A stretch of DNA of 42,377 nt from an uncultured Paracoccaceae bacterium (GTDB lineage: Bacteria; Pseudomonadota; Alphaproteobacteria; Rhodobacterales; Rhodobacteraceae): assembly GCA_938016515.1 (NCBI GenBank), contig CALILP010000127.1:1-42377 (forward strand), in the 5' to 3' direction. Positions 14,344-42,377 of this stretch are shown in pieces. Positions within the stretch are counted from its first letter, which is position 1; each line of letters opens with the position of its first letter. The notes beneath the pieces were generated by a model. The model searched no databases and was not told the DNA's origin. It saw only the letters and a program-made list of their open reading frames with translations. The position numbers and the translations under genes were made by a program.

Positions 14344-15756
14344 TTAGTTACGGTCGTAGATATCTTCGTAGCGTACGATGTCGTCTTCGCCCAGATAGGC
14401 CCCTGTTTGCACCTCAATCAGGTACATCGGCAGCTTACCGGGATTGGCCATGCGGTGGACGGTGCCAACAGGGATATAGACCCCTTGGTTTTCGGTCACC
14501 AGCTGGACATCCTCGCCGATGGTGACTTCTGCTGTTCCCGCAACAACGATCCAGTGTTCGGACCTGTGGTGGTGACTTTGCAGGCTGAGAACGCCGCCCG
14601 GCTTCACCATGATCCGTTTGACCTGAAAACGCGTGTCGAGGCACAGTGTTTCGTACCATCCCCAAGGTCGGTGAAACCGTGGATAATCATCAGCTTGCGC
14701 GACAGAGTTCGCCCGCAGCGCACTGACAACCGCCTTCACATCCTGCCCACGTGATTTATCCGCGACAAGGATCGCGTCCCGCATCGCCACAGCCACGATG
14801 TTGTCCAATCCAAGACCCACCAGCTGGATGTTGTCATCCTCGGATCGCAGGTACGTGTTCTTGCAATCAATGTCCGTGACAGCGCCGAATGTTGCGACCC
14901 CGTTTTCATCCGGGTTCTGCGCCTGCCACAGCGATTCCCAGGACCCAAGATCAGACCACGCGCTGGTCAGTGGGACGGTCATCACCTTTGCCGCTTTTTC
15001 CATGATCGCATAGTCAAACGAGATCGCTGTCGCCTTGCTGTAACCCTCTGCGCCAAGCCGGCAAAAGCCGAGGTCTTCTGTGCTGGCCGCAAGCGCCGCT
15101 TCACAGGGCGCAATCAGATCGGGCGTATGGGTCTGAAAGGCTGCAAGGATGTCGGACACCCGGAACAGGAAGATGCCAGAGTTCCAAAGGTAATTGCCCG
15201 CATCCAGCATCGCCTGTGCTGTCGCCTCATCCGGTTTCTCGCGGAAGCTTTTGAGGTCGACCGCCGCCCCACTTTCAGGTTGGCGAGCCAATTCAAGATA
15301 GCCATACCCCGTCTCGGGCCGATCCGGCGTCACACCAAAGGTGACAAGCGCGCCAGTTTCAGCGGCTTGCGCCGCTGTCATCACACAATCCACAAAGGCA
15401 GACGGATCAGCGATCACATGATCCGATGGGGCGACCAGCATAATTGCGTCTGGCTGGTCTTTCAGAGAAAGCGCTGCAGTCAGGATCGCAGGTGCCGTGT
15501 CCCGCGCGGATGGTTCGATGTAGACGCGGGCATCTGACAGGCCGATGTCTGTTGCCTGCTCCATCGCCATGAAGCGAAAGTCATCGCCGGTCATGATAAT
15601 GGGCGCAGCTAGCCCTTTGCCGCTGAGACGGCGCAAGGTCATCTGATACAGGCTTTCATCGCCGATCAATGGCGCGAATTGTTTGGGATACGCTTTGCGC
15701 GAGACAGGCCACAGTCGCGTGCCGGAGCCGCCACAAAGAATGACAGGATAAATCAT
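14344..15756 (-). CDS. manC: Mannose-1-phosphate guanylyltransferase / mannose-6-phosphate isomerase
   Basis: 470-residue bifunctional type II enzyme of the AlgA/CpsB/ManC group, full family length; makes GDP-mannose for exopolysaccharide. Seen: nucleotidyltransferase motif GGSGTRLWPVSRKAYPKQF at the N-terminus, FREKPDE and NSGIFLF in the middle. The C-terminal cupin isomerase domain has PWGWYETL, QSHHHRSEHWIVVAGTAEV (metal ligands) and YIPVGTVHRMAN. Start chosen at MIYPVILCGG (15756), preceded by AAAGG nine bases upstream; a longer reading adds ten poorly conserved residues. Transcribed away from the pyruvyltransferase gene; likely the left edge of the polysaccharide locus. Confidence 0.92.
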   Translation of the reverse strand: MIYPVILCGGSGTRLWPVSRKAYPKQFAPLIGDESLYQMTLRRLSGKGLAAPIIMTGDDFRFMAMEQATDIGLSDARVYIEPSARDTAPAILTAALSLKDQPDAIMLVAPSDHVIADPSAFVDCVMTAAQAAETGALVTFGVTPDRPETGYGYLELARQPESGAAVDLKSFREKPDEATAQAMLDAGNYLWNSGIFLFRVSDILAAFQTHTPDLIAPCEAALAASTEDLGFCRLGAEGYSKATAISFDYAIMEKAAKVMTVPLTSAWSDLGSWESLWQAQNPDENGVATFGAVTDIDCKNTYLRSEDDNIQLVGLGLDNIVAVAMRDAILVADKSRGQDVKAVVSALRANSVAQADDYPRFHRPWGWYETLCLDTRFQVKRIMVKPGGVLSLQSHHHRSEHWIVVAGTAEVTIGEDVQLVTENQGVYIPVGTVHRMANPGKLPMYLIEVQTGAYLGEDDIVRYEDIYDRN

Positions 15757-16090
15757 GAAAACACACCTTTCACACAATGACACAGGCGAGGCCGGCCCGA
15801 AGGTCTTATAGATATGACATGCCGCAGGGGGCCTTCGTTGGCAAGGGTTATCAGCTTTAGATTGTCCTTAGAAACGGGTCAATCTTGGCCTGTAATGTAT
15901 TGTTGTTGATGGATAAACATAACTCCGGCCTTGCTTGTGCACCCACACGACTGAAGTCGCGCCATCATTCCCAAAGCCCTCACATCATATCGCACCACTT
16001 TCACAACAGTGTTTTCTTGGAAGGTGACATCACTTAATGTCCCGACCACGCGAAGCCACGTAGGTTTTGCGAATCGATAAGGCGTTATGT
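15757..16090. promoter_or_regulatory. Divergent intergenic region manC / pyruvyltransferase
   Basis: About 334 bases without a gene. For manC a weak candidate promoter on the minus strand is TTGACC (15877-15882), 17-base spacer, TAAAGC (15854-15859); the -10 match is poor. No clear promoter was found for the plus-strand gene. No strong repeat or hairpin seen. Confidence 0.3.
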
Positions 16091-17278
16091 GTGAAAATTG
16101 TTCAGTTTGGTTTGTGTTTTAGCCCCAACCTTGGGGATGGTGTTATCGCGGAATGTATCGGTCATGGGCTAAGAACCAAACGACCGGACGCCACCGTCAC
16201 CCACATTGATTTATCCGGTCGCCAAGACTTTGGCCAAGTCGTGATCCCCAATCGCGAAGCTATACTTGCGATTGTCGACCGTCTGCCCTTGTTCATCCGG
16301 CAACGGCTGGCGCAATGGAAGTTGAACCGACTGGTTGACGGCGTCGCTGATCAATGGCGCAAGGCTGCACAGGCAAATCTTGCGATCATCGGTGGCGGTC
16401 AGGTTTTTTCAGATTCCAACCTGAACTTTCCGATTAAAATCGGCCGGGTTGCCGACATTCTTGCCCAGACCCAGACACCAACGGCCGTCTTCGGCGTCGG
16501 CGTTTCAAAGAACTGGACCCCAAAAGGCAAACACCTGTTTCACAAACTGGCGGATGCGGATGTGCGCATGGTCGGCGTCCGAGACGACGGGTCTGCGGCC
16601 GGGTGGCGCGCGCAGATGTCCCAAGGCCCTGCCCCAGAGCTGACGCTTGATCCGGGACTACTGGCCGCGCTGCATTACGGCCCAGCTGCTGACCCCAAGG
16701 GTGTTGGCCTTTGCGTAACCGACTTTGGGATACTGGCCCATCATGCCAGCGGGACCGTTGCAGGCGCTGCAGCCACGGCCACTGCGTTTTATGCAGGTAT
16801 TGCTGGCGCTGTGCTTAAGAAGGGCCACGCAGTGACCTTGTTTTGCAATGGCGCCGCAGAGGACATCGCCCTTTTGGAAAAGGTTGCAGCCGATCCTTCT
16901 TTGCAAGGCTATCGCGACGCCAATCACTTGCATGTTCCAACGGCACCGCGCACCCCGACAGAGCTTGTGGCGATCATTGCCGGCTGTGAGGCCGTGATTG
17001 CCCATCGCTTGCACGCCTGCATCGTGGCCTACAGCTATGGTCGTCCGATTGTGGGGCTTGGCTGGGATACCAAGTTGGATGCCTTCTTTGAGACCGCCGG
17101 GCTGTCAGGATGCTTTTCTTCTGCACCCGATCTTTCAGCCCAAGACGTCGCGGATTTGGTCACTGGCGCGATGGCGCAGGGGATTGATGCAGATCATCAC
17201 GCAAAACTGCTGGCAGACACCTGGGACGGATTTGACCGGGTGCTGGCCTGTGCCGCTACTGCGCCTGCCGCACCGTGA
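16091..17278 (+). CDS. Polysaccharide pyruvyl transferase family protein
   Basis: 395 residues, PS_pyruv_trans family (CsaB/WcaK-like), expected to transfer pyruvate from phosphoenolpyruvate to a sugar of the polysaccharide as a ketal. Seen: N-terminal NLGDGVIAE (typical N-[FW/L]GD start of the family), nucleotide-fold segment AIIGGGQVFSD, GVRDDGSA, and the C-terminal hallmark AHRLHACIVAYSYGRPIVG followed by WDTKLDAFF. Start chosen at GTG 16091 because AAGG lies 7 bases upstream and the first residues (VKIVQFG) form the expected first strand; a TTG at 16067 would add eight residues. Pyruvyl groups would give the polysaccharide negative charge. Its last 23 bases overlap the convergent glycosidase gene. 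Confidence 0.85.
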   Translation: MKIVQFGLCFSPNLGDGVIAECIGHGLRTKRPDATVTHIDLSGRQDFGQVVIPNREAILAIVDRLPLFIRQRLAQWKLNRLVDGVADQWRKAAQANLAIIGGGQVFSDSNLNFPIKIGRVADILAQTQTPTAVFGVGVSKNWTPKGKHLFHKLADADVRMVGVRDDGSAAGWRAQMSQGPAPELTLDPGLLAALHYGPAADPKGVGLCVTDFGILAHHASGTVAGAAATATAFYAGIAGAVLKKGHAVTLFCNGAAEDIALLEKVAADPSLQGYRDANHLHVPTAPRTPTELVAIIAGCEAVIAHRLHACIVAYSYGRPIVGLGWDTKLDAFFETAGLSGCFSSAPDLSAQDVADLVTGAMAQGIDADHHAKLLADTWDGFDRVLACAATAPAAP

Positions 17279-18917
17279 TCCGATAGTCGGTCAGGTCTCC
17301 GGATGCTGTCTCACCCGGTCCAACGACCACATCAAGTTGGGTGCCTGCTGCAAGGTCCAGCCTGATCGCGTCAAATTGTAACGTTCCTTTGCCCGTTTGC
17401 GCCGCAATGACCTTGCCATCGCGCAGGATGGTGACGCTAATACCGTCCGCACTGCGTGGCACTGGCGTGAATGTCCCTGTCAGTTCAACAGCCTGCGCCG
17501 TGGTCGCTGTGTAGCGATGCGTGATGCTGACAGGGGATTGTCCTGTCCCACCGGGTAACATCGTCCGGGGAAGCAGCCGAATATCGCCGTTTCCGGGGAT
17601 GCCCAACCAAGGTGTCCAAGGTCGCCCTGCACGCGCCTGACCGGGCATCGTCGCAAATGCGGTGTCCGCCCCTGCAAAGCGCGTGAACCCCCCGCCTGCA
17701 CGCCCGTCCGGCGGATAGGTAAAGCCGTGATAGCTGTCGGCCAGGACCGTTTGTGGCGCGAGACGCAGGTCACGTTCCAAAGAAAGCTGGTTTGGTGCGA
17801 TGACGATCAGCGGCTCTGTCTGGGACAATTCAAATGCTGGGCCGTCCAGCTGCCTGCCCGTCGCGTCGAAAACTGTCAGGTTTGGTGAAACCAGCGTGAC
17901 CTGCCGTTGCATCCCCCAAATGACCAGTTTTCGATCATCATAAAGGCACGCATAGGTAAAAGGATCAGGTGCGACATCGCTCACAACATGCCCCGCCAAT
18001 TCCGTTTGGGCAAAGGCAAACGCCTGCCACGTAGCCGTCCGCGTTCCATCCCGTGTGATCAACGGTTCGTAATCATCGCCTCGTTCGTTCAAGGCATACC
18101 ACGCAAGGCGGCTGGCCCCTGCCAATGCGTATTGGCAATGACTGCGGATCAGTTTGCCAGGCCCCTGTCCGGGGTCTTGCGTGCCGAATTCCGTGATCTC
18201 TATGGGGATTTTTGCAAGTTGAGGATTGCGTCGCATCACCTTGATTTGTTTTGCATAATGTTCGACCGGAGTAGAATACGGATGCAGGGCGATGCTGTCC
18301 ATATAATCCCCTGCGCCAAGCGCAAAAAGCTTATCAAGATAGCCTGTCGGGATTGAATGCACGCCACCGCCAATGATGCGGATATCGGGGCGGACGGCCC
18401 TGGCTTGGGTGGCGACCTCGCGCAGGAGCGCCACATAAGCTGAGGCGCGTGCATCCAGACCTGCGTCGCGCAAGGGTCCGGTCACAAAGTTGGCGCTGTT
18501 AAACTCGTTGCCCACTTCGATGGCTGTGATCGCAGGAAAGCGCGCGACGGTTTCGGCGGCGTGGCGCCCGAAGGCACGCGCGGCCTTTTCAGTCGTGGGT
18601 GTCTCCCCGGTTTGATATGCAGGATGGCCGTTGTTGACAGTCAGGCTCATGGTGGCGCCGGCTGCTGCCAGCAGATCGGGATACACTGTCTCTGCTGTCT
18701 CGAAGCGGAAAGTGCCGTCTGCCCCTTCGACCCGGTCCCAATAAAGTGCATCGCGGTAGTCGGTGATCCCTGCCCCGATGGATTGGGTCAGCAAGTCTGC
18801 CAAAAAGCCCTGACCGAAGTTTGATGCAACCGCGAGGTCCGGCCCCCGCAATTCCTGCGACGACGCCGCGCTACTTAGGACCGCACACAAAAGAAGGCCC
18901 GACATTACCTTACGCAT
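17256..18917 (-). CDS. Secreted glycoside hydrolase, GH39/PslG-like
   Basis: 553 residues with an N-terminal signal peptide (MRKVMSGLLLCAVLSSAAS). Seen: TIM-barrel glycosidase of clan GH-A type, with proposed acid/base Glu138 in GNEFN and proposed nucleophile Glu243 in ITEFG; landmarks LTVNNGHPAYQ and DSIALHPYS fit the GH39 / PslG-like group. A beta-sandwich-like C-terminal region of about 150 residues follows, possibly carbohydrate-binding. Start at MRKV is supported by GAGG six bases upstream; upstream residues lack signal-peptide character. Location between a pyruvyltransferase and a polymerase suggests it trims or recycles the locus' own polysaccharide in the periplasm or outside, as PslG does in Pseudomonas (inference). 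Confidence 0.75.
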   Translation of the reverse strand: MRKVMSGLLLCAVLSSAASSQELRGPDLAVASNFGQGFLADLLTQSIGAGITDYRDALYWDRVEGADGTFRFETAETVYPDLLAAAGATMSLTVNNGHPAYQTGETPTTEKAARAFGRHAAETVARFPAITAIEVGNEFNSANFVTGPLRDAGLDARASAYVALLREVATQARAVRPDIRIIGGGVHSIPTGYLDKLFALGAGDYMDSIALHPYSTPVEHYAKQIKVMRRNPQLAKIPIEITEFGTQDPGQGPGKLIRSHCQYALAGASRLAWYALNERGDDYEPLITRDGTRTATWQAFAFAQTELAGHVVSDVAPDPFTYACLYDDRKLVIWGMQRQVTLVSPNLTVFDATGRQLDGPAFELSQTEPLIVIAPNQLSLERDLRLAPQTVLADSYHGFTYPPDGRAGGGFTRFAGADTAFATMPGQARAGRPWTPWLGIPGNGDIRLLPRTMLPGGTGQSPVSITHRYTATTAQAVELTGTFTPVPRSADGISVTILRDGKVIAAQTGKGTLQFDAIRLDLAAGTQLDVVVGPGETASGDLTDYRITVRQAQ

Positions 18918-19090
18918 CACACACCTCAGTTGGCCTTGTGCCACTGAGAGGCGGCGGCTGGCCCAATTGTTACTCAATCACAAACATATGCGTACCAATC
19001 CGGTGATCATTGCGAAATCAAGAACAATTTACCACCGCCGGACTGGTTTCATCGTTGACATACACGACACAGATGGCGCCAGAAAGGGGG

Positions 19091-20536
19091 ATGCAGATTG
19101 TTCTTAGCTCCGTTCTGGCCCTTGCGGTCATTGCGGTCCTCGCGTTTCGGGGGCCTTACCGCGGGCTGTGGATGTTCTTTGCTGTGACCCCACTGGCAGC
19201 TGCGGCGGCGATTAATTTGCCGGCTGTGGGTGGTGCATCGATCCTTGTGTCGGATTTGGTGGCCTTGATGATGTTCGCGCTGGTGATCGTGCACCGCAAC
19301 GGTCTGACGCTGATGGCGGGCACGATGCGGTTTGGTCAGCCCGGCTTCTGGATGCTGTTGCTGATGCTGTATGCCAGTTTTGCGACATTGATGCTGCCCT
19401 CTGTTTTTGCAGGGCAAACCGAGGTGTTCAGCCTGTCACGCAGAGCCAACGAATCCGGTATCATCTCGATCCCGCTGGGCCCGAGTTCTGGCAATCTGAC
19501 CCAATTGTTCCGCCTTGGACTGGGGGTTGCGATCTTTTATGCGACGGCGACAGTCTTTCGCGTCCGGCCAGATGGCCGCACGATCCTGACCGCTTTGACC
19601 GTGGCGACCGGCGTGAACGTGGCCCTTGGCTGGCTGGATGTTGCGACGTATGCGGTTGGGCTGGAGGCATTGTTAGAGCCGATCCGCAGCGCCAACTACG
19701 CGATCCTATATGACGTCCGAATGGCCGGGCTAAAGCGCATGATCGGTGGCTTTCCCGAGGCCAGCTCTTATGGGTATTTCAGCTTGGGCCTGTTTGCGTT
19801 CTGGTTCCAATACTGGCTGGACACCCCCAAGTCGCGCTTTGTCGTGTTCATGGTGGTGATCACAGCGGTAGCTGTGCTGCGGTCCACGTCATCGGCATCC
19901 TACGTGGCTTTCGTGGCGTATCTTGTCACGGTTGGCCTGCTGTGGGGCGGCCGCACGTTTGGCATGCAGACCGAAAGGCGCACGATAGCCATTGCCATCG
20001 GCGGATTGCTGGTCGCATGGCTGGCCGTCATCGCGATTTTCGCAAGCTATGAATATGTCGGTGCTGTGCAGGCCTTTCTTGATCGTGCTTTGTTCAACAA
20101 GCTTGATGGTGCCTCTGGCGTGGAGCGGCTGAGCTGGAATACGCAGGCCTTTCAGAACTTCCTCGATACCGGACTGATGGGGGCCGGGTTGGGCAGTGTG
20201 CGCGCCTCCAGCTGGTTCATGGCCACGCTGGCCAGTCTTGGGCTGATCGGAACGGGATTGTTTGCGCTTTTCATTGCAAGCGTGCTGTGGCCTGTCAGAC
20301 CTTCCAACCCGCAGGACCCCCGTTGGGCCGTTGTGCGGGCGTTGCAATCTGCTTGTATCGCCCTGCTGATCTCGGCCTGTCTGACAGGTGCGACGCCTGA
20401 CCTAGGCGTTTTCTTCTTTGCGTTTTGCGGTCTGGCGGCTGGACTTCGGCGAGGTGTGATTCTTGAAGTCGCACAACCCTTGGGTGCATCCCCGACACGC
20501 GCCCCAGCAAGGGTGGACAATCCGGCGCGCGCATAG
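19091..20536 (+). CDS. O-antigen ligase/polymerase-type membrane protein (Wzy-like)
   Basis: About 481 residues, strongly hydrophobic with roughly ten or more membrane segments and a long periplasmic loop in the second half containing the family-like text LSWNTQAFQNFLDTGLMGAGLGSVRAS. This is the Wzy_C/O-antigen ligase pattern: it would polymerise undecaprenyl-linked repeat units on the periplasmic side. Start uncertain: ATG 19091 has a purine-rich AAGG very close upstream, ATG 19073 is six residues longer with no clear ribosome site, and TTG 19010 longer still. Positioned just before the wzc-like gene, as expected for a Wzx/Wzy system. Hydrophobic polymerases diverge quickly, so ligase versus polymerase is not decided. 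Confidence 0.75.
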   Translation: MQIVLSSVLALAVIAVLAFRGPYRGLWMFFAVTPLAAAAAINLPAVGGASILVSDLVALMMFALVIVHRNGLTLMAGTMRFGQPGFWMLLLMLYASFATLMLPSVFAGQTEVFSLSRRANESGIISIPLGPSSGNLTQLFRLGLGVAIFYATATVFRVRPDGRTILTALTVATGVNVALGWLDVATYAVGLEALLEPIRSANYAILYDVRMAGLKRMIGGFPEASSYGYFSLGLFAFWFQYWLDTPKSRFVVFMVVITAVAVLRSTSSASYVAFVAYLVTVGLLWGGRTFGMQTERRTIAIAIGGLLVAWLAVIAIFASYEYVGAVQAFLDRALFNKLDGASGVERLSWNTQAFQNFLDTGLMGAGLGSVRASSWFMATLASLGLIGTGLFALFIASVLWPVRPSNPQDPRWAVVRALQSACIALLISACLTGATPDLGVFFFAFCGLAAGLRRGVILEVAQPLGASPTRAPARVDNPARA

Positions 20537-20684
20537 GCTTTAGAGCCGGAAAAAGCGACAAAATTTCGGACAATTCGTCACAAAACGGACTTTAGGTCAC
20601 CATGTCCCGACAAAGGGTGTTATAAGTGACGTGGGGGCTCATGTTGGGCATCCGTGTATTTATTACTGAGTGAGTGGTTCAGGT

Positions 20685-22883: not shown

Positions 22884-24078
22884 TCCAAACAAGCTGCAGC
22901 CGATGAGCCCTGTCACCATAAAACAACCCCGTGTTGCCCTGATCCACTATTGGTTGGTCGGCATGCGCGGTGGCGAGAAAGTTTTGGAAGCCCTGTGCCG
23001 GATGTATCCCCAGGCTGACATTTTCACCCACGTCTATGACCCGTCCAAGATCAGCGGCACCATTAACAGACACAAAGTCACCGAAACCTCGGTCGGTCGC
23101 CTGCCCTTCGCGAAACGGCTTTATCAATCCTATCTGCCTTTCATGCCCCGCGCCCTGGAAGAGCTGGACCTGACCGGTTACGACCTTGTCATTTCAAGCG
23201 AAGCTGGCCCGGCAAAGGGTGTGATCGTCCCCCCCGATGCTTTCCATTTGTGCTACTGCCACTCTCCGATGCGGTACTTGTGGGATCAGTATCACGTTTA
23301 TCGCAATTCAGCCGGCCTTTTGCCGCGGATTATCATGCCGCATGTCGCCCACCACCTGCGCGAATGGGATGTCTCTAGTGCTGCACGGGTTGACGTCTTT
23401 GCAGCCAATTCCAACCACGTCGCATCCCGGATCGAAAAGTACTGGCGCCGTGATGTAACAGTCGTGCATCCCCCGGTCGATCTGGCTGCATTCTCGCCTG
23501 CTGACCCCGCTGATATTGGCGATTTCTATCTTTGGGCGGGCGAATTGGCCCCCTATAAGCGCCCTGACATCATGATCGAAGCCTTCAACCGTCTGGGTCT
23601 GCCCCTGATTGTGATCGGTGGTCCGGAAAAGACCCGCCTGAAGCTGGAAGCCACAGCCAACGACAACATCACATTCCTGGGGCGCGCCCCGTTCGACGTG
23701 TTGAAAGACCACCTGTCGCGGTGTCGTGGCCTGATCTTTCCCGGTGAAGAAGACTTTGGGATTGTTCCCGTTGAGGTCATGGCCTCTGGCCGCCCTGTGA
23801 TCGCCTTTGACCGTGGCGGTGCTCGAGATACCGTCGTGCATGGTCGGACCGGTGTTTTGTTCGAAGATCAAACCGTTGAGGCTTTGGTAGCCGCTGTCGA
23901 ACGTTTCGAGACCGACAAGCTGTATGAAATCGATAGCGACACATTGGTTGAACACAGCAATCAATTCAGCGAGGATGCATTTTGCGAGGGGATCAACAAT
24001 ATGCTGCCAGCACATTTGCGATCAGATGCGCAACGATACGTCACCGATGAGGCCGAACCACCATGGGCAGCCCAGTAG
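22873..24078 (+). CDS. Glycosyltransferase family 4 protein
   Basis: About 401 residues with a GT-B fold. Seen: N-terminal VALIHYWLVGMRGGEKVLE (donor/acceptor loop), CYCHSPMRYLWDQYH in the middle, and the GT4 signature FPGEEDFGIVPVEVMASGRPVIAFDRGGARDTV near residues 291-323 with the EX7E pair. Text of this kind is common among mannosyl- or glucosyltransferases of exopolysaccharide loci; donor and acceptor not determinable, though manC makes GDP-mannose plausible. The start is one of three possible codons (GTG 22858, ATG 22873, ATG 22903), none with a strong ribosome site, so coupling to wzc is likely. Its 3' end overlaps the phosphopantetheinyl transferase gene by 16 bases. Confidence 0.85.
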   Translation: MQHDPNKLQPMSPVTIKQPRVALIHYWLVGMRGGEKVLEALCRMYPQADIFTHVYDPSKISGTINRHKVTETSVGRLPFAKRLYQSYLPFMPRALEELDLTGYDLVISSEAGPAKGVIVPPDAFHLCYCHSPMRYLWDQYHVYRNSAGLLPRIIMPHVAHHLREWDVSSAARVDVFAANSNHVASRIEKYWRRDVTVVHPPVDLAAFSPADPADIGDFYLWAGELAPYKRPDIMIEAFNRLGLPLIVIGGPEKTRLKLEATANDNITFLGRAPFDVLKDHLSRCRGLIFPGEEDFGIVPVEVMASGRPVIAFDRGGARDTVVHGRTGVLFEDQTVEALVAAVERFETDKLYEIDSDTLVEHSNQFSEDAFCEGINNMLPAHLRSDAQRYVTDEAEPPWAAQ

Positions 24079-36500: not shown

Positions 36501-37128
36501 CATCGCAGGCTATGGTCGCAGCGCTTAGAACAACGTCGGATGGGAAAAGCGCAAGCTCTGGCTGGTCATAGGCCATCGCAGTCACAGCACGATGGGGGAT
36601 GACCACCCCTTTGGGCCGCCCCGTCGTTCCCGACGTATATAGAATGCACGCTGGTGCATCTGGTGAGACGGTCGTGTCTTCAACCGGGTTTGCCGCGTCG
36701 CAAGCCGCGATATCGACAACCGGAACACCCACCGACGCAAACTGGGCCTTCGCAGCCTCGCTCGCCTTGCCATAGGACAAGGCCGCCTTGAACGGCACGT
36801 CTTGTGTGATGAAACCCAATTGTTCCGGCGCAAAGGCAGGGTCCATTGGCACGTAAACCGCCCCGACCTTCAGACAGCCCAAAATCCCGGCAATCGTCTC
36901 GAAGGACCGCGATCCGAACACGGCAACGTGGTCACCAGCAACGATCCCGGCATGGACCAAGGCCCCTGCCACGGCCCCTGCACGGTCATCAAGATCTTTG
37001 TAGCTGCGTGTCCCGTTGACAGTATGAACTGCGGCTGCATTTGTACACCGGCCAACTTGGGCCGAAAATGCTATGGCAATAGACAACTCTGACGTCAGAT
37101 CACTCAAACCAACACACCCCCGACGCAA
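27499..37128 (-). CDS. Hybrid NRPS/PKS megasynthase: A-PCP-KS-AT-ACP-aminotransferase-C-A-PCP
   Basis: 3209 residues. Domains seen: A1 (30-505; ILYTSGTTGRPKGV, GFGPTETS, GKIDRK). PCP1 (530-597, Ser558). KS (617-1047; Cys794 in TACSTS, His930 in HGTGT, His967 in NLGH). AT (1140-1430; GHSVGE Ser1236, HAFH typical of malonyl-CoA). ACP (1527-1600, LGFDSL Ser1559). A Pro/Ala/Gln-rich linker (1601-1690). Class III PLP aminotransferase (1690-2145; IDEVVTGFR, Lys1980 in TYGKVVGGG). C (2164-2595; intact HHIVADG). A2 (2608-3095; pocket reads DILQLGMIWK, glycine-like). PCP2 (3110-3180, LGVDSL Ser3141). No KR, DH or ER. The order parallels MycA/ItuA of iturin-type lipopeptides, but starts with an A domain. 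Predicted chemistry: load a unit, add malonate, transaminate the beta-keto group, condense with glycine. The start is TTG with AGGTGAT six bases upstream. Confidence 0.92.
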   Translation of the reverse strand: MRRGCVGLSDLTSELSIAIAFSAQVGRCTNAAAVHTVNGTRSYKDLDDRAGAVAGALVHAGIVAGDHVAVFGSRSFETIAGILGCLKVGAVYVPMDPAFAPEQLGFITQDVPFKAALSYGKASEAAKAQFASVGVPVVDIAACDAANPVEDTTVSPDAPACILYTSGTTGRPKGVVIPHRAVTAMAYDQPELALFPSDVVLSAATIACDGALAELLVPLLCGASIALVEADTPDIHTVAETMIRHRVTVALWYAGLHHLMIAHRPDAFATVRISEQGGDVMSVPMAEKLLRAWPDLRLFNGFGPTETSVRSLLHEVTLDDVAAGAIPIGRAMTGETILVVDEDLAEVAPGQIGELAIGGTGLAIGYYNRPDETSEVFIADPRPPHTGRVYLTGDLAVQDANGVFRFAGRADRQVKMAGRRVEVDGVEHVLRGLDGVTEAAVEVVQDAKGTTRLAAFVTTDGPVVDEAAFVASMRDAASADLARDVFPRDVVFLDAFALTQAGKIDRKALRALQAPQSDAASRNKPADVAGLIGGIWRDILGGPEPTAKDTFFDLGGTSLQLIDAHAQIEKALGLHFAIADIFALPRLGDLADHLTQLAGDTADRPNPTQTANVVTDDHAVAIVGMAARLPGGVDFADFWQVLRDGRSLIETFDPTTAEDAFDPATRASDAYVPARSLLRDVDQFDAKFFDMRPREAALTDPQGRVFLEICQEALDNAGIDPDRTKDAIGVYAGAPMSTYMLDNLLGDRDKLRAFTSGFQIDYEILAGNDSSDLATRVAFKLGLKGPAISMNTACSTSLVAIAQACKALRSGDADAALAGGVSITFPQQRGYLYMESGMASSDGLCRPFDAQASGTVFGHGAGVIVLKRLADAKADGDHIHAVIRGVGLNNDGADKMSYTAPTVKGQAAAIRTAHRDAGVQASQIGYVECHGTGTPLGDPIEIAGLAKAFGTSEGTCALGSVKGNLGHLDAAAGVMGVIKAATVLKEKTIPPVAHFERLNDRITLDGTPFTVPATAQDWPSDGSRFAGVSSFGVGGTNAHVVLEQAPDPACEATLQDGCCVLPLSAKSPEALTQMAGSLAETLSDQPDLVLTDVAHTLQSGRRSFDYRIAVVASSTGDAVTELGAAKAPTAPVQSSKANVVFLFPGQGAQYPGMGADLYDSDPAYAGWINAGCDILAPIIGQDIRPLILGQNLSAQQAAAALRETRLTQPALYLTEYALGHLWAQRGVRGDAFIGHSVGEFAAAALAGVMSFEEGLHLIARRGQLMQDQPPGAMVSVRATLADLTPFLDETVDLAAQNAPKLQVIAGPDAAIDALMQRLETAQIACRRLHTSHAFHSKMMDPVSVGLQEIAQTIQFNAPDRPIYSTVTGQRLSDSQARDPAYWAAQARACVNFQGAVTAAANDMSPAFVEVGPGRALSTCAAQTASRDQVRCTAQSLPDHTRPIGDLTAMATAAAGLWVAGADVDLAAFGQRGTLKIELPSYPFQRQTCWIDPPECASSQAVDPVLAPPKPESLPMPTSVPADRQPRLCNDLCAMLSDMSGDDIGLTESDVSFVELGFDSLFLGQVSQEIGKTYGVQIGFRKMLSEVSSVSALAAYLDAELLPEAPASAPIETPVIAGAPVMPVAASGTDANAIVQAQLQTMQAVFAQQLQALGQAPTASPAPLVPAPKPVAQSQTTATETQPAAFKFGRGPSVAGGTLTDEQISFAQDLATRYSDKHAKSKAYTAKHRNVLADPRTAAGFREDWKELTFPIVADRSKGAYVHDLDGNDFVDLVNGFGQTAFGHSPDFVIDAVNAQMEKGFPIGPQTDLAGPVAQKFAQAVGHDRVTFCNTGSEAVMAAMRVARTVTGRDLIVVFDRDYHGQFDEVLVKGKASGASADPLPIAPGIPRSGLSNMKVLPYGGDTALHWIRENINDVAAVIVEPVQSRHPEHRPVDFVRALRTITRDNGAALVIDEVVTGFRTGAQGMQGIWGIQGDMATYGKVVGGGMPIGVLAGDAAFMDALDGGTWQFGDDSQPEAMPTFFAGTFVRHPLVLAAVDATLDHMAAQGDDLWIAAADRTAQVAAQLSEIMTSRGLPDLIETYASWFVINVTEADPRATLLYPLMRMEGLHVMDGFCCFLTTEHGDAECAKIVDGFTAALDALLAVGILTDLQDDTTTPVSSNAGVPLTASQREIWMTHQLGGMAAAAFNESGSLDLKGTLDMTSLQAAWADLIARHDALRLRFARDGATFDVTPPDVPTLDLIDVNGPSDLQDLIAKDAATPFDLTADLPIRAVIAKLSDDHHVLVITAHHIVADGWSFAVFLADFADMYTAAVNGDQTNLPAAQSFAAHASAEAGQAPTPQTKAFWQSMHTPAPTLPDLPTDRPRPQQRSYAGGTVFYDVDGDLVQTVKKAGAKAGCTLFATTFAAMQILVHRISGSRDFALGVPTAAQQNLTNQDLVGHCVNFLPIRIPLAEGAAISDHLNVVRDGLNAALDHQDTTFGAIVQDLAIPRALNRLPLAEIEFNLEQDKPLEEMTGLTTQFHPNPKQAVNFDLFFNVVETQTGLRIEAHFNADLFNADRVTGWARAYKAILTAMTKDMSQPVSNIAMLTQQEQLALLTKNAVSGDYDRSMTLVDMIQRMVVQTPHAPAVSDDHVTWTYADLDQRSDALAALIQDTVTGQGKRVALCLPRGADMVAGLLGILKAGHTYVPLDPNQPAARLAQIVQTAEVSAILTDIPETADIGQDLQLILAQNAVAGTQPTPATVAADDPAYVIFTSGSTGTPKGVVVAHRALVNFLTSMGQAPGCAASDKLLAVTTVMFDIAALEIFLPLTVGGQVAIAPTEMVVDGFKLVERLGQGDITVMQATPTLWDMALTAGFTPPAGFRILCGGEALPQDLADRMLGQGADLWNMYGPTETTIWSAIKQVNAGAAITIGQPIANTGLHILDEAGQLVPDGVVGELNISGDGLALGYYGRDDLTAQAFRDVTLAGQTMRLYATGDLAQRTPQGDIAVLGRIDTQVKLRGFRIELGEIETRLRAVAGITQAAVDLRKRSNGDGQLVGYLVAEDGQSLDLNAVAVALAADLPDYMVPRAWVTLSALPQTGNGKLDRKALPDPQDTASVTPLHQRVIPSTPTEKRIAAIWETVLERQQISVTDTLYALGVDSLALFRIAAHMLNDGLNLEAKHMFAHPSIRALSDFHDSRTASGPVSGRPSLKSYRDGAHRGRGTTGAAR

Positions 37129-37447: not shown

Positions 37448-38275
37448 TTAGGTCACCCCGGTCTGGCGCGATTCGTCGGCAAGGTCGTTTCGGATCAGCA
37501 GATACCCATTGCTTTCGCTGGGTCCGAGCATCGGATGCGTGGCGATGACGTGGGACAATTCCGGGATCGGCCAAGTGTCCGCGATCTGGTAGCCAGCCGC
37601 ACTGACCTCAGCAGACCACGTTTGGGTGGATCTGATGTGGTAAGGCACCTTGGCGCTGCCGATCCGCTCTATCGTGAAAATGGGGGTGCCGGATCGTAAG
37701 GGAAGCTTGTTGATCAGAATGTATCCGGGCGGCTTTTGCAGGCCTTCAAGAAACGCGCCGAGCGGTTGGTCAAGGTATTGTAAGACCCCCGATGCGATCA
37801 TCAGTTCAGCCGGTGGCACTTGTGCAAGGTCGTCCCAAAACGTGATGGCCTTGGGTATCTGACCCTGCGCTTGCCGCGCCCGTGCCGCAGCGATGATGCC
37901 CGGCAAATCATAGACCACCCAGCGCAGGTCTTTGACATTAAGAACATCACGGAACGCTATGTATTTCGTTCCTAAATGCCCACCAGCATCAAGGATGGTA
38001 CCACCTTGGGGCAGCAGTGTTTTAAGCCAATACAGAAGTGGATAATCCCAAGCCGCCCGCGTGCACATCCAATCAAACGAGACCTCTGCAATGGCGCTAT
38101 CATCATACCCGGACTGCAGCCTTTCAGGAAGGCTTGTCAGCGCCGCGTCGCGTGTTTCAAAGGCCCCCGAAAACCGTGATGCGCGCGCCGTGTTTGCACG
38201 AAGGCGCGCCGACGCCGTTGCAGGCAGGGACGCCGCCGACATCAAAGCATGCTTCACGCGCCCCCGTCGTGTCAT
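37448..38275 (-). CDS. Methyltransferase, TIGR04325 family
   Basis: 275 residues. Seen: SAM-binding motif TILDAGGHLGTKYIAF (about 93-108), the downstream VVYDLPGII, IASGVLQYLDQP, and YILINKLPL near residue 200, together the pattern of the TIGR04325 putative methyltransferases often found in polysaccharide loci. Start chosen at MTRRGR (38275) because it overlaps the flippase stop by 4 bases (ATGA); a longer reading would lie entirely in flippase coding sequence. Substrate unknown: it could methylate a sugar of the repeat unit or the amino-acyl product of the NRPS/PKS that follows on the same strand. Confidence 0.75.
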   Translation of the reverse strand: MTRRGRVKHALMSAASLPATASARLRANTARASRFSGAFETRDAALTSLPERLQSGYDDSAIAEVSFDWMCTRAAWDYPLLYWLKTLLPQGGTILDAGGHLGTKYIAFRDVLNVKDLRWVVYDLPGIIAAARARQAQGQIPKAITFWDDLAQVPPAELMIASGVLQYLDQPLGAFLEGLQKPPGYILINKLPLRSGTPIFTIERIGSAKVPYHIRSTQTWSAEVSAAGYQIADTWPIPELSHVIATHPMLGPSESNGYLLIRNDLADESRQTGVT

Positions 38276-39762
38276 CCGGCCACCCTGCGGCCAAGTCCGG
38301 ATGTCAGGGTTCGCCAAAAATCAGCGTCAAAAGCGCGGATCGCTGCGGCGTAGACCACAGTCGCCGCAAGCCCGAAAACAACCACCTCAACCAGATCAGG
38401 CAGGCCAACCGCTTGTGTTGCCTGATCAAGCACCACCAAGGTCCCGACGCCGCAAGCAAGCGGAAGCAACACACCACGCAGTTCGGTCGCAACGCCCCGC
38501 CACGCAATATCTGCGTGTTTTCGGAACAACCAAACCGTTGCCACCGTGACAATCGACGCGATCACAACCTGCGACCACGCAACAGCGTAGACGCCGAATT
38601 GCACAGCCAAGAAGGTCAACGCCACAGACACAACCAGCACCATCAAGGTGAACCCCGGCAAGCGTTTGGCCTGCCCCACAATCGACATGAGCGGTTCTGT
38701 CACGATCCCGAAAAGAAACAGCAGCCGACTAATGGCAAGGATTGCAACCAGTGGGGCCGCTGGCGCCCATTCCGCGCTAAGCAATCCACCGATCAGTTCG
38801 TCGCTCATCACCATCATCCAGACAAATATGGGTGCACCTGCCACAAAAAGCATCTTGATATGCTGGCTGACCTGCGCGTTGATCCGGGTCGCCTGCCCCG
38901 CCGCATCACCGTCATCACGCGCTTTGCGCAGCAAGGTCCACGCCAGCAATTGTCCCGGCACAGCAATGACTTCTGCTGCTGCACTGACCAACCGATCAGC
39001 TGCACGAAAGAACCCAACAGCCGCAGGCCCAAGGTAGCCCCCGATAATGAAAGTCGCCGCATAAAGCCGGATGTTGATCAGCATACGCGCCGTGAAAATC
39101 TGGCTTGAGAAGACCCAGAGGTCGTGCATCAACTCTCGCGTCATTCCAGTCTTTGGTGACAGCCGGGTGATCGCAAAACTGAGTGTCAGATGGGTGCTTT
39201 GATATGACAGCCGCGCAAAGGCCAATGACAGCAGCCCCCACCCCGACAACAGCGTTGAAATGGCCACAATCAGTCCGACGATCTCGCCTGTGATTTCGCA
39301 GATGGCAGAGGCCTTCATTTTGTTTTGCCAGATCAGGATCCCCTTTTGGGCCGATGATGTGTTGGCCATCATCACCCAGATCGAGAACAGCGCCATCAGC
39401 CAGACGACCTCGGGCGGCACGGCCAACTGACCCGCGATAACAGCGCCACACAGGCCAATCCCGCCCACAACGACCCCCGCCAAGATAGCCATCAGCAGGA
39501 CCTGTCGCGGCACCGTATCATCACCCGAAGTGGACATGATAAACGGCGCCCAACCCACCTCTGCCACGCGCAAAAGCAGGATTGCACTGGCCGAGGCAAG
39601 CGCGAAGACACCAAAATCCGCAGGGCCAAGAATGCGGGCTGCCACAACAAATACCGTGAATTGCGCAATTTGAGAGATAACACGTTCTGCCACGGTCAAG
39701 GCCGTGTCGCCCATGACCTTACGGGAACCGGCCTGCGCAGAATCGCGGGAATCTTGCTGCAT
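38272..39762 (-). CDS. wzx: Polysaccharide flippase, Wzx/MATE-like
   Basis: 496-residue membrane protein of the oligosaccharide flippase superfamily. Seen: about 12-14 hydrophobic segments, N-terminal ALTVAERVISQIAQFTVFVVAARILGP-type text with the family's ARILGPADFGVFALA, and GYLGPAAVGFFRAADRL in the middle. It would translocate the undecaprenyl-linked repeat unit to the periplasm for Wzy. Weak ribosome site; an internal ATG at residue 17 is an alternative start. It is first in a minus-strand set followed by the methyltransferase and then the NRPS/PKS genes, so a modified repeat unit could pass through it. No other exporter is present near the NRPS/PKS. Confidence 0.85.
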   Translation of the reverse strand: MQQDSRDSAQAGSRKVMGDTALTVAERVISQIAQFTVFVVAARILGPADFGVFALASASAILLLRVAEVGWAPFIMSTSGDDTVPRQVLLMAILAGVVVGGIGLCGAVIAGQLAVPPEVVWLMALFSIWVMMANTSSAQKGILIWQNKMKASAICEITGEIVGLIVAISTLLSGWGLLSLAFARLSYQSTHLTLSFAITRLSPKTGMTRELMHDLWVFSSQIFTARMLINIRLYAATFIIGGYLGPAAVGFFRAADRLVSAAAEVIAVPGQLLAWTLLRKARDDGDAAGQATRINAQVSQHIKMLFVAGAPIFVWMMVMSDELIGGLLSAEWAPAAPLVAILAISRLLFLFGIVTEPLMSIVGQAKRLPGFTLMVLVVSVALTFLAVQFGVYAVAWSQVVIASIVTVATVWLFRKHADIAWRGVATELRGVLLPLACGVGTLVVLDQATQAVGLPDLVEVVVFGLAATVVYAAAIRAFDADFWRTLTSGLGRRVAG

Positions 39763-40280: not shown

Positions 40281-41204
40281 ATGGTTATGTGTGCGACAAG
40301 CAGCACCTCTCATGTCATGTCGCGGCCTGCAGTTGTGGTCGGTATCGCGACAACCGGTCGTCCGAAAATTGTGCACGACACACTGTTACAGCTTGCATCG
40401 TTGCAGAATGGGCCGGACGCTGTGGTTCTGAGCATTGCGGATGCGCAGGATTTTGATGCAACGCAGCTGCCGCAAATGCCATTCCCGCTGCAGGTGTTGG
40501 AATCGCCAAAGGGCTTATGCGACCAGCGCAATACGATCCTCAAACACGTCGATCCCGATTGCATCCTGCTGTTTCTGGACGACGACTTTCTGATTGCAGA
40601 TGGGTTTATCGACGCCACACGCGATGCGTTCGAAGATGATCCCAGCATCGTGATGACAACAGGGTCCGTTCTGGCCGACGGTATTCTGGGCCCCGGTATG
40701 ACCCATGCTGACGGATTGGCGCATTTGGCCAAAGCAACACGCCCCAAGGGCACCCCTACCCGGTCGGAAACCTATAACGGCTACGGCTGCAATATGGCGA
40801 TCCGCATGTCTGTGGTGCATGCCAACGGCCTGTCATTTGATACCTCGCTGCCCCGCTATGCGTGGTTAGAGGACGTCGATTTCTCGCGCATGTTGGCCAC
40901 GTATGGGCGTGTCGTGAAAGACAGCCACATGCGCGGCGTCCACCTTGGCACAAAGACCGGACGGTCCCGTGGGGTGCCATTGGGGTATTCTCAGGTCGCC
41001 AACCCGATCTTTTTGATCCGCAAGGGCACGATGGCACCGAAACGTGCCCTGCGCCTGATGTTCCGCAACATTCTGGCAAACCTTGCAAAGACATTGCGAC
41101 CAGAACCTTGGGTGGATCGGCCTGGACGGGTGCGTGGGAACTTTCTTGCCCTCAAAGACCTGATCACCGGCCGTATCGCACCATCGCGGATACTGGACCT
41201 TTGA
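40281..41204 (+). CDS. Glycosyltransferase family 2 protein
   Basis: 307 residues with a GT-A fold. Seen: VVVGIATTGRP at the first strand, nucleotide/metal motif LFLDDDF (98-103), and a later acidic pair in WLEDVDFSRML that would hold the catalytic base. Start at ATG 40281 with AAGG close upstream; ATG 40287 has better spacing and ATG 40317 also possible. It is followed by another GT gene whose TTG start overlaps this stop. Probably adds one sugar of the repeat unit; donor unknown. Confidence 0.82.
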   Translation: MVMCATSSTSHVMSRPAVVVGIATTGRPKIVHDTLLQLASLQNGPDAVVLSIADAQDFDATQLPQMPFPLQVLESPKGLCDQRNTILKHVDPDCILLFLDDDFLIADGFIDATRDAFEDDPSIVMTTGSVLADGILGPGMTHADGLAHLAKATRPKGTPTRSETYNGYGCNMAIRMSVVHANGLSFDTSLPRYAWLEDVDFSRMLATYGRVVKDSHMRGVHLGTKTGRSRGVPLGYSQVANPIFLIRKGTMAPKRALRLMFRNILANLAKTLRPEPWVDRPGRVRGNFLALKDLITGRIAPSRILDL

Positions 41205-42377
41205 GCGACACCGCACCATCGGCCCACGCCTTGCGGGTCGTGATCCTGAACGATTCAAGTGTGGCCAAGGGCGGTGCCACTGGCCTTGCCACACTGTCAG
41301 CCCGCATGTTCAGCGCGCGCGGCATTCCCACAACCTATATCGCGGGTGATGATGGCGATGACGGCGCCTTGGCAGCCTTGGGTGTCGACCTGATCGCGAT
41401 GGGCGGCAAGCTGTTGCTGGACGCGGGCAAACTGCAGGCCATGCGCGCGGGCATCTTCAACACCGAGATACGTGACAAGGTCGCCGCACATATTGCGGCG
41501 CATGATACGCCCGGCACGGTTTATCACCTGCATGGGTGGTCACGGATTTTGTCTCCGGCTGTGTTTGATGCGCTTCAGCCGGTGGCAAACCGTACCTTCA
41601 TCCATGCACATGACTTCTTTTTGGGATGCCCCAATGGCGCATTCTACGACTACCGCAAGGAAACCGTTTGCACGCGAACACCGCTATCACTGAGCTGCCT
41701 CAGCACCGCATGCGACCGGCGCGCCTTTCACCACAAGCTGTGGCGCAGCGCACGCAGCGCGATGCTGCGGCGGACGTTCAGTAAGGATGTACCCTGGGCA
41801 AAAGTTTTCGCGCTGCACCCCGGTATGCTTTCTGCCCTTGCGCGGTCGAATATTCCGCAGGAGCTGATGACGACAGTCAGAAACCCCGCAAAACCTTTTG
41901 TCGACAAGCGGATCACCGCAGAGGCCAATCGCACGTTTTGCTTTATTGGTCGGGTCGAAATGGGCAAGGGGATCAACACTCTGTGTGAGGCCGCCCGTTT
42001 GGCCGAGGTTCCGCTGCGTGTCATTGGTGATGGCGCGGAACTGGATGCCTTGCGGGCGCATTACCCCGAGGTCGCGTTTACAGGTTGGGTGGATCAGGCA
42101 GATATCGGTGCGCACCTGAAAGATGTGCGCGCATTAGTGATGCCTTCACGCACACCAGAACCGTTTGGCCTTGTTGCTGCCGAGGCATCGCTTAGCGGGT
42201 TGCCGGTGATCCTTTCGCAACAGGCCCTGCTTGCAGAAGAGTTCGCCACTCAAAATCTGGGCTTTGCCGCAGATACCGACACGCCAGTGGCCTTGGCAAA
42301 GGTGATCCGGAAAGTCGCCGCCTTGCCTGAGGATACCACAAAGGACATCAGCCTGCGTGCCTTTGCTGGACAGGGCC
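41201..42377 (+). CDS. Glycosyltransferase family 4 protein (partial, 3' end outside window)
   Basis: Open from a TTG codon at 41201 (overlapping the preceding stop as TTGA) to the window end, 392 codons without a stop. Seen: VVILNDSSVAKGGATGLA near the N-terminus, HLHGWSRILSP and HAHDFFLGCPNG in the first half. The second half has CFIGRVEMGKGINTL and the GT4 signature SRTPEPFGLVAAEASLSGLPVI. No ATG lies near the start, so TTG with translational coupling is the best choice; GTG 41240 is an alternative. Shows that the polysaccharide locus continues to the right. Confidence 0.8.
   Translation, partial: MSDTAPSAHALRVVILNDSSVAKGGATGLATLSARMFSARGIPTTYIAGDDGDDGALAALGVDLIAMGGKLLLDAGKLQAMRAGIFNTEIRDKVAAHIAAHDTPGTVYHLHGWSRILSPAVFDALQPVANRTFIHAHDFFLGCPNGAFYDYRKETVCTRTPLSLSCLSTACDRRAFHHKLWRSARSAMLRRTFSKDVPWAKVFALHPGMLSALARSNIPQELMTTVRNPAKPFVDKRITAEANRTFCFIGRVEMGKGINTLCEAARLAEVPLRVIGDGAELDALRAHYPEVAFTGWVDQADIGAHLKDVRALVMPSRTPEPFGLVAAEASLSGLPVILSQQALLAEEFATQNLGFAADTDTPVALAKVIRKVAALPEDTTKDISLRAFAGQG

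What the first reader, a model, noticed from the sequence alone, without database searches (positions are those of the whole stretch)
14344..42377. NRPS/PKS assembly line embedded in a Wzx/Wzy exopolysaccharide locus
Seen: two NRPS/PKS genes lie between wzy/wzc/GT4 and methyltransferase/wzx/GT genes. The carrier-activating PPTase gene starts inside the GT4 gene of the wzc operon. No separate MFS, ABC or MATE-type drug exporter is visible near the synthetase apart from Wzx. Inference: the synthetase product is attached to the polysaccharide repeat unit, or made and exported together with it. A basic amino-acyl substituent plus pyruvyl ketals would give a zwitterionic polymer. I do not know a described system of this design.
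Basis: partly seen in the sequence, partly recalled or inferred. Interest (0 to 1): 0.88.

Follow-up and report, generated by a model that had tools for sequence, protein, structure and literature searches.

The report
Peptide assembly line for a polysaccharide
A bacterial gene cluster that builds a surface sugar polymer also carries a complete peptide/polyketide assembly line, and the two travel and change together across distant marine and root-nodule bacteria, which suggests cells hang a custom-made peptide on each sugar repeat before exporting it.

Summary
At 14344-42377 an NRPS/PKS (A-PCP-KS-AT-PCP-AMT-C-A-PCP, then C-PCP-TE) and its PPTase sit inside a Wzx/Wzy locus. It is a conserved type: polysaccharide genes lie beside it in 18 of 18 fetched Rhodobacterales/Rhizobiaceae plasmid loci and in 16 of 18 genome loci, but in 0 of 15 control NRPS loci. 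A relative in another alphaproteobacterial family sits in a different Wzx/Wzy locus. In G400 the synthetase is unlinked, yet a polysaccharide locus lies on another contig. The second A domain has a glycine code (recalled) nearly everywhere; the first varies. The releasing C-PCP-TE protein tracks the flippase (distance r 0.79, 0 of 5000 permutations) more than any other gene tested. Best reading (0.6): the synthetase builds a Gly-ended beta-amino acyl group with a variable head, its Cys thioesterase transfers it to the lipid-linked repeat, and a matched Wzx flips it. Attachment is inferred, not shown. Seven literature searches aimed at this design (open access only) found no described system.

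The parts
14344..15783 (-). ManC-type mannose-1-phosphate guanylyltransferase / isomerase
   Evidence: PF00483 2e-51, PF01050 1.5e-46
16067..17278 (+). polysaccharide pyruvyl transferase
   Evidence: PF04230 1.5e-28
17256..18977 (-). protein with a signal-peptide-like start (read by eye), possibly glycoside-hydrolase-like (weak)
   Evidence: no Pfam hit at 0.001; Glyco_hydro_cc E 0.042, below cut-off; homologues in many relatives, with and without NRPS
19010..20536 (+). Wzy-like polymerase (by hydrophobic sequence, position and conservation only)
   Evidence: no Pfam/NCBIfam hit; homologues in loci with and without NRPS
20670..22883 (+). Wzc-type chain-length determinant / tyrosine autokinase
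   Evidence: PF02706, PF13807, PF13614; TIGR01005 5.2e-67, below its cut-off
22858..24078 (+). GT4 glycosyltransferase
   Evidence: PF00534 8.2e-25
24063..24761 (+). phosphopantetheinyl transferase
   Evidence: PF01648 1.7e-19, PF22624; NF042922 (HetI) 9e-40, below its cut-off
24758..27502 (-). terminal protein C-PCP-TE; core of the A domain absent; C motif HQSCFDG; TE nucleophile Cys (GNCVHG)
   Evidence: TE model nearest to 4zxh AB3403
24761..25585 (-). TE domain with Cys nucleophile and conserved Asp; canonical C-terminal His not conserved in its subfamily
27499..37128 (-). NRPS/PKS A1-PCP-KS-AT-PCP-AMT-C-A2-PCP (start codon uncertain)
   Evidence: active-site motifs present
35599..37056 (-). 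A1 adenylation domain, code DGALIEGVRK, variable among loci
   Evidence: position mapping recalled
32743..35274 (-). KS-AT (KS Cys and two His motifs; AT GHSVG and HAFH, malonyl-type by recall)
30901..31887 (-). class III aminotransferase domain (AMT)
   Evidence: PF00202 1.7e-49, Lys motif
29347..30642 (-). condensation domain, HHIVADG
27862..29283 (-). A2 adenylation domain, code DILQLGMIWK (glycine by recall)
37448..38317 (-). TIGR04325 SAM methyltransferase; nearly restricted to NRPS-positive genomes
   Evidence: class I methyltransferase fold
38272..39762 (-). Wzx flippase (clade I)
   Evidence: PF13440 1.3e-27
40281..41204 (+). GT2 glycosyltransferase
   Evidence: PF00535 6.7e-05, exactly at its cut-off
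41132..42376 (+). GT4 glycosyltransferase, cut by the contig end
   Evidence: PF00534 6.2e-18; extent

Best explanation
The locus makes a Wzx/Wzy-dependent polysaccharide whose repeat unit carries a short acyl-peptide made on demand. Step 1 (inferred from domains): A1 loads a locus-specific amino acid; KS-AT adds one malonyl unit; AMT converts the beta-keto group to a beta-amine; C-A2 adds glycine; the A-less C-PCP-TE may add a second glycine loaded by A2, or only relay the chain. Step 2 (inferred): the Cys thioesterase transfers the product to the lipid-linked repeat in the cytoplasm, perhaps to an amino or hydroxyl group. Step 3 (supported by co-variation): Wzx of the matching type flips the decorated repeat, and Wzy/Wzc polymerise and export it. 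The PPTase arms the carrier domains; the methyltransferase may cap or tailor the product or its sugar. Shown: gene content, linkage and co-variation. Not shown: covalent attachment, acceptor, product.
For: Linked polysaccharide genes in 16 of 18 genome loci and in 18 of 18 alphaproteobacterial plasmid loci fetched, versus 0 of 15 control NRPS loci; the same test does find the unrelated sugar loci of G721 and G072 when their own proteins are left out of the queries. Association with non-homologous sugar gene sets in G072 and in another family, G721. Co-occurrence in 394 family genomes: TIGR04325 methyltransferase in 11 of 14 NRPS-positive and 1 of 380 others; GT2 in 13 of 14 and 16 of 380 (Fisher). 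The methyltransferase in G237 and G353, and the sugar locus in G400, lie on other contigs than the synthetase yet co-occur. C-PCP-TE distances follow Wzx (r 0.79, n 14, 0 of 5000) versus 0.16-0.37 for wzy, wzc, GT4a, GT2, GT4b and PPTase and -0.07 for rpoB; within clade I alone Wzx is still the highest (0.78; TE part 0.79), next wzc 0.66. Genomes with clade I Wzx gave no clade II gene and the reverse; G194, G375 and G355 hold a single PF13440 gene, the clade I one, so it probably serves the polymer. Constant glycine-type A2, variable A1. No other exporter in the window. Wzx can discriminate side sugars, and acetylation affects flipping (PMC6436433 and PMC11759038, abstracts).
Against: No chemistry. 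No transferase for attachment is identified other than the TE; an Acyl_transf_3-type acyltransferase lies beside GT4b in G024, G194 and Jannaschia, beyond the cut end of the window, and could be an alternative. G400 has the synthetase unlinked; G355 fragments are too short to tell. NRPS-positive G197, G308 and G400 carry clade II Wzx, Rhodobacter CZR27 a Wzx near neither clade, G072 a non-homologous one, and NRPS-negative G404 carries clade I. KS and C1 of the main synthetase follow GT2, GT4b and wzy rather than Wzx (KS-Wzx 0.20, C1-Wzx 0.08; within clade I 0.42 and 0.28). The methyltransferase and the initiating transferase show no distance correlation with C-PCP-TE (-0.07, -0.01). Mantel permutations ignore phylogeny and n is 12-15. 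PF13440 counts do not see every MOP transporter. The PMC11759038 abstract also stresses broad flippase specificity.
Confidence: 0.6

Rival explanations
1. The synthetase makes a free small molecule (signal, metallophore or surfactant) that is secreted by Wzx or embedded in the matrix, without covalent attachment.
For: A TE domain normally releases; small free products are ordinary for NRPS/PKS; G400 keeps the cassette away from the sugar genes; Wzx belongs to the MOP superfamily that also holds drug exporters (recalled).
Against: Clade I Wzx is the only PF13440 gene found in G194, G375 and G355, near-complete NRPS-positive genomes that also hold wzy homologues, and clades I and II were never found together, so it looks like the polymer flippase rather than an extra exporter. 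Control NRPS loci do not sit in sugar loci; a Caballeronia one has its own peptide ABC exporter.
Confidence: 0.2
2. The product is joined to the carrier or chain end (a lipid-linked primer or terminal cap), once per chain rather than once per repeat.
For: The methyltransferase could cap a chain end (inference); Bac_transf or GT2 lie in the same locus in many cases.
Against: Wzx handles every repeat unit, and it is Wzx that co-varies most with the releasing protein.
Confidence: 0.1
3. The two systems are merely neighbours that hitch-hike on the same island or plasmid.
For: Patchy distribution (14 of 394), plasmid location in many strains, no species-tree signal (rpoB r -0.07, n 12).
Against: Gene order is rearranged while content stays (G006, G061, G364, G306, G353); non-homologous sugar gene sets are used in G072 and G721; the PPTase overlaps the GT4 gene; partners on other contigs still co-occur.
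Confidence: 0.07

Closest known systems
Wzx/Wzy-dependent exopolysaccharide loci with cytoplasmic decorations
   Same: Flippase, Wzc, glycosyltransferases, pyruvyltransferase; flippases can read decorations (PMC6436433 and PMC11759038 abstracts)
   Different: No modular NRPS/PKS assembly line is part of the described loci that I know or found
Amino-acid-decorated marine exopolysaccharide of Vibrio alginolyticus
   Same: Amino acids (D-Ala, D-Ser) amide-linked to the polymer (PMC4663550, passages)
   Different: Single amino acids on galacturonic acid; the term 'biosynthesis' does not occur in that text and I saw no gene named; here the predicted group contains a polyketide extension and a beta-amine
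Dlt D-alanylation of teichoic acids (recalled)
   Same: Adenylation enzyme plus carrier protein supplies an acyl group to a cell-surface polymer
   Different: One amino acid, with DltB/DltD at the membrane; here a multi-domain line, and no DltB/DltD among the main ORFs scanned
Mycosubtilin/iturin-type AMT synthetases (recalled)
   Same: KS-AT-carrier-AMT order that gives a beta-amino acyl unit
   Different: Those start from a fatty acyl ligase and release a free lipopeptide; here A1 keeps the Asp of amino-acid A domains
Cys thioesterases SulM, ObiF, AB3403
   Same: Cys nucleophile (PMC11298585 passages); AB3403 (4zxh) is the nearest solved structure by sequence and by fold
   Different: The window's subfamily has GxCVHG and no conserved canonical C-terminal His

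Membership tests
Wzx/Wzy-dependent polysaccharide pathway | Wzx flippase of the polysaccharide-synthase family | tested here: met
   PF13440 1.3e-27
Wzx/Wzy-dependent polysaccharide pathway | Wzc/Wzz co-polymerase | tested here: met
   PF02706, PF13807
Wzx/Wzy-dependent polysaccharide pathway | Wzy polymerase | tested here: inconclusive
   No family match in the window; Wzy_C found in G072 and G721
Wzx/Wzy-dependent polysaccharide pathway | Initiating phosphoglycosyl transferase | tested here: inconclusive
   Not in the window, which ends inside the locus; Bac_transf present in 11 of the 12 other NRPS-positive loci with at least 35 kb fetched, C33 of G308 included (not at G400 C15)
Hybrid NRPS/type I PKS | A, C, carrier, KS, AT domains with intact motifs and a PPTase | tested here: met
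Hybrid NRPS/type I PKS | Every elongating NRPS module has its own A domain | tested here: not met
   The window's terminal module has only an A remnant; the 17 rows are 808-997 residues from the start of the C match, too short for a full A domain, though only the window's was scanned with Pfam; G721 keeps the A domain
Dlt D-alanylation system | DltB/DltD membrane transferase | tested here: not met
   No such match in the 26 main ORFs scanned; the locus is cut at the contig end
Classical Ser thioesterase | GxSxG nucleophile with C-terminal His | tested here: not met
   Cys in 17 of 17; in the 11 GxCVHG rows the C-terminal His is not conserved (4 of the 11 have a His in that stretch, 7 do not)
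Mycosubtilin-type AMT synthetase | N-terminal fatty acyl-AMP ligase | tested here: not met
   A1 matches NRPS A domains, best solved match LgrA, with Asp at the amino-binding position (mapping recalled)
Polysaccharide-decorating system | Product covalently bound to polymer | not testable with these tools
   needs chemistry

The most novel reading that the evidence does not exclude
A previously undescribed class of surface glycan: a Wzx/Wzy polymer in which each repeat carries a nonribosomal beta-amino acyl-glycine group, with strain-specific chemistry set by one variable adenylation domain, joined by a Cys transferase-type thioesterase and checked by a matched Wzx. It spans Rhodobacterales, Rhizobiaceae symbionts and at least one further alphaproteobacterial family.
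Probability: 0.5. Interest if true: 0.93.

Novelty: categorically new. Interest (0 to 1): 0.85.

Why it matters
If true, assembly-line biosynthesis, known for antibiotics and siderophores, also builds the side groups of bacterial surface polymers. That would give polysaccharides a new route to chemical diversity, explain orphan NRPS/PKS clusters in roseobacters and rhizobia, and offer a cytoplasmic enzyme that joins peptides to lipid-linked glycans for glycoengineering. It also makes a testable case of how a flippase reads its cargo. Some carriers are nodule isolates, so the group could matter for symbiosis (inference).

Tried and rejected
Two proteins without family hits (17256-18977; G006 708 aa) stay unassigned. 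Counting the C-domain hits of the class-wide search as relatives was rejected: of the 15 other genomes, G721 proved a true relative; 10 of the remaining 14 were fetched and show NRPS matches but no sugar genes (two of them, G823 and G553, share a 43-44% stretch of about 900 residues with the synthetase); 4 were not fetched (G474, G609, G692, G804). Reading A1 as a fatty acyl ligase was rejected. Reading G400 as a refutation was softened by its separate sugar locus. ORF256 of L018 was dropped as a likely antisense frame of the PPTase. The ORF caller picked wrong strands in GC-rich loci, so presence was judged by tblastn. G061 and the Loktanella salsilacus plasmid loci give nearly the same match values and may be one species. 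G072 was left out of the Mantel sets. Rows needed a hit over at least 55% of the query (C-PCP-TE rows by another rule). Three control stretches are short (22-30 kb). Of 22 plasmid records 21 were fetched; the second Rhizobium AB2/73 record was not.

Literature: ten searches of the held open-access library. Seven were aimed at this design; three at Wzx specificity, Cys thioesterases and amino-acid-bearing exopolysaccharides. Seen: passages of PMC11298585, PMC4663550 and PMC6256449 (the last names exopolysaccharide genes and NRPS/PKS clusters separately), abstracts and section lists of PMC6436433 and PMC11759038. The rest were search listings only.

Full report
What is there. On the + strand: pyruvyltransferase, a Wzy-like protein (no family hit), Wzc, GT4 and a PPTase whose start overlaps the GT4 end by 16 bases. 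On the - strand: ManC, a protein of unknown family, C-PCP-TE (24758-27502), a 3209-residue NRPS/PKS (27499-37128), a TIGR04325 methyltransferase and Wzx; then GT2 and GT4 on the + strand to the contig end. The active-site motifs looked for in the main synthetase are present. The ABC genes upstream look like importers. The window equals contig C127 of an 81.4% complete assembly.

Conservation. A search of 56 genomes of the genus gave two near full-length relatives of the C-PCP-TE protein besides the window's, G024 (71%) and G006 (45%); 394 genomes of the family gave 14 positives at 1e-100, the window's included. Neighbourhoods were read by tblastn with window and G006 proteins. Of 18 NRPS-positive genome loci (G000, G024, L018 Pseudooceanicola SP158, G006, the 13 others, and G355), 16 have polysaccharide genes on the same fetched stretch: 14 by tblastn; G072 with non-homologous Bac_transf, GT, Wza, Wzx and Wzy_C genes by Pfam; and G308, split over two contigs, one with NRPS, PPTase, Bac_transf and GT2, one with C-PCP-TE, Wzx and a GT4. 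G355 is in small fragments: NRPS and PPTase on one, Wzx and a Wzy homologue on another. G400 has synthetase, PPTase and methyltransferase on one contig, with one glycosyltransferase-like gene, and a sugar locus (Bac_transf, GT2, GT4b, pyruvyltransferase, wzy, wzc, GT4a; no Wzx) on another. Gene order differs between types while content largely stays.

Wider range. In plasmid records 22 match. I fetched 21. All 18 of these from Rhodobacterales and Rhizobiaceae (Jannaschia sp. M317, Loktanella salsilacus twice, Rhodobacter CZR27, ten Rhizobium, three Sinorhizobium, Ensifer canadensis) show the synthetase with PPTase, Wzc and/or Wza genes and glycosyltransferases; 17 of 18 also show a flippase in the stretch (not SL42). 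The 14 rhizobial loci all add a DegT-type aminotransferase, which could supply an amino-sugar acceptor (inference). Several are close strains, so lineages are fewer than records. In 385 genomes of the class, 16 match at 1e-70, the window's included. One is a further true relative: G721, of another family, carries A-PCP, then KS-AT-PCP-AMT-C-A-PCP (46% over 2611 residues), then C-A-PCP-TE with a Cys nucleophile, again near Bac_transf, Wzy_C, Wzz, GT2, GT4, WecG and Wzx genes. There the last module still has an A domain with the same glycine-type code, which suggests that the window's A-less module descends from a Gly module.

Controls. tblastn with a query set that also holds rhizobial, G072 and G721 polysaccharide proteins, on 12 other alphaproteobacterial NRPS loci (10 of the class hits, plus G047 and G050 of the genus) and on Caballeronia NK8 and Nostoc plasmid loci, found no Wzx, Wzy, Wzc, Wza, Bac_transf or GT match at 1e-8. 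Caballeronia zhejiangensis was negative with the earlier set at 1e-10 and has a peptide ABC exporter next to its NRPS. So 0 of 15. The test is not blind to unrelated loci: without their own proteins as queries, G721 still shows Wzx and Bac_transf, and G072 Wza, Bac_transf and a GT4.

Co-occurrence without linkage. Among the same 394 genomes the methyltransferase occurs in 11 of 14 NRPS-positive and 1 of 380 negative genomes (G444); GT2 in 13 of 14 and 16 of 380. The methyltransferase sits on another contig than the synthetase in G237 and G353 with no other locus gene within the fetched 20 kb, and GT2 does so in G400. In 33 chosen genomes, PPTase homologues occur in 14 of 16 typed NRPS-positives (not G146, G306), in the G355 fragment, and otherwise in G294 and G444. 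These comparisons ignore phylogeny.

The flippase follows the synthetase. Sugar loci without synthetase (G284, G407, G225, G248, G125, G404) keep wzy, wzc, GT4a, GT2 and GT4b homologues but these genomes gave no match to the synthetase, PPTase or methyltransferase at the thresholds used. The Wzx tree of 23 rows has two deep sides: clade I holds 13 NRPS-positive genomes and the negative G404; the other side holds seven negatives (G225, G248, G125, G407, G284, and the more distant G105 and G216) and the positives G197 and G400, to which G308 belongs by identity (47%). Without G105 and G216: clade I in 13 of 16 positives and 1 of 6 negatives (p 0.011). Seven further negatives gave no Wzx match at 1e-12. 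A clade II query finds no clade II gene in clade I genomes, and G194, G375 and G355 have a single PF13440 gene, the clade I one. Rhizobial Wzx score higher with clade I than with clade II; CZR27's is near neither. Distances of C-PCP-TE correlate with Wzx at 0.79 (n 14), and at 0.77 in a common set of 12 genomes where wzy gives 0.26, GT4a 0.17, GT2 0.36 and GT4b 0.39. Within clade I the contrast is smaller: Wzx 0.78, wzc 0.66, GT4b 0.56, PPTase 0.52, wzy 0.49. KS and C1 of the main synthetase instead follow GT2, GT4b and wzy (0.49-0.74) and not Wzx (0.20, 0.08; within clade I 0.42, 0.28). The methyltransferase and Bac_transf show no correlation with C-PCP-TE. My reading: the release protein sets what the flippase sees. 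In the window and in G024, G062, G375, G237 and Jannaschia the synthetase gene lies between wzx and C-PCP-TE, so closeness alone does not explain it.

Product logic. A2 codes are of the form DILQ-(L/M/F/W)-G-(M/L/V)-(I/V)-WK in 14 of 15 genome loci where an A2-type domain was read (G072 differs), in 12 of 12 plasmid loci read (of 18), and twice in G721; by recall this is glycine. A1 codes differ between loci but keep Asp. With malonyl extension and AMT the expected product is X-CH(NH2)-CH2-CO-Gly, with a possible second Gly. Codes and specificities are recalled, not tested. G308's synthetase matches only in C-A within the AMT-C query, so it may lack AMT, and no A1 was read in G400.

The terminal protein. 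The C motif varies at the catalytic second His (HQ in 7, HH in 6, HN in 2, HR and HS in one each of 17). The TE nucleophile is Cys in all 17; in 11 the motif is GxCVHG and the usual C-terminal His is not conserved (4 of 11 have one in that stretch); nine aligned TEs of this group share His90 and His216 of the excised domain. The model (pLDDT 86) is nearest to AB3403 and other thioesterases. Cys nucleophiles are known from SulM, ObiF and AB3403 (PMC11298585 passages). That this TE favours transfer to an acceptor over hydrolysis is inference. Relatives G024, G194 and Jannaschia hold an Acyl_transf_3-type acyltransferase next to GT4b, which in the window would lie beyond the contig end; it could O-acetylate the sugar or be the attaching enzyme.

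Conclusion. The coupling is real, widespread and mobile. Covalent decoration before flipping explains most of the data; a free co-exported product remains possible. The design was not found in print in the seven searches aimed at it, which cover open-access papers only. I call it categorically new because no known kind joins a modular NRPS/PKS line to a Wzx/Wzy polymer; the single components are all known.

Noticed in passing
L018:13518-15329; also in the loci of G062, G146, G061, G237, G306, G197 and in L229, L232, L233: A CocE / X-Pro dipeptidyl-peptidase S15-family hydrolase recurs beside the PPTase or GT4 in 7 of the 17 NRPS-positive loci, but not in the window; possible editing or trimming enzyme.
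   Followed up: partly
L230:24899-26083 and the other rhizobial loci: DegT/DnrJ-type aminotransferase in all 14 rhizobial plasmid loci fetched, a candidate source of an amino-sugar acceptor.
   Followed up: partly
G721 (L227, L225, L226): Relative from another alphaproteobacterial family with an intact third A domain of the same glycine-type code, inside a different Wzx/Wzy locus.
   Followed up: yes
L028:2478-3584 (G024), L142:5671-6741 (G194), L228:3729-4808 (Jannaschia): Acyl_transf_3-type acyltransferase next to GT4b in close relatives; the window ends before that place.
   Followed up: no
G404 (L124-L125): Has clade I Wzx and two wzy types but no synthetase; may be a locus that lost its NRPS.
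   Followed up: no
window:3-14123: Importer-type ABC genes, a ZnuABC-like zinc uptake operon and an Mrp-type Na+/H+ antiporter operon next to the sugar locus; synteny with the antiporter is kept in G024.
   Followed up: no
G047:C8 (L072-L073) and G050:C14 (L074-L075): A separate four-gene NRPS system in the same genus, without polysaccharide genes found nearby.
   Followed up: partly
L031:10172-10576 and L030:11291-13417: Two G006 proteins without Pfam hits (134 and 708 aa) inside the locus; the 708 aa one recurs in G061, G364 and Loktanella salsilacus.
   Followed up: no
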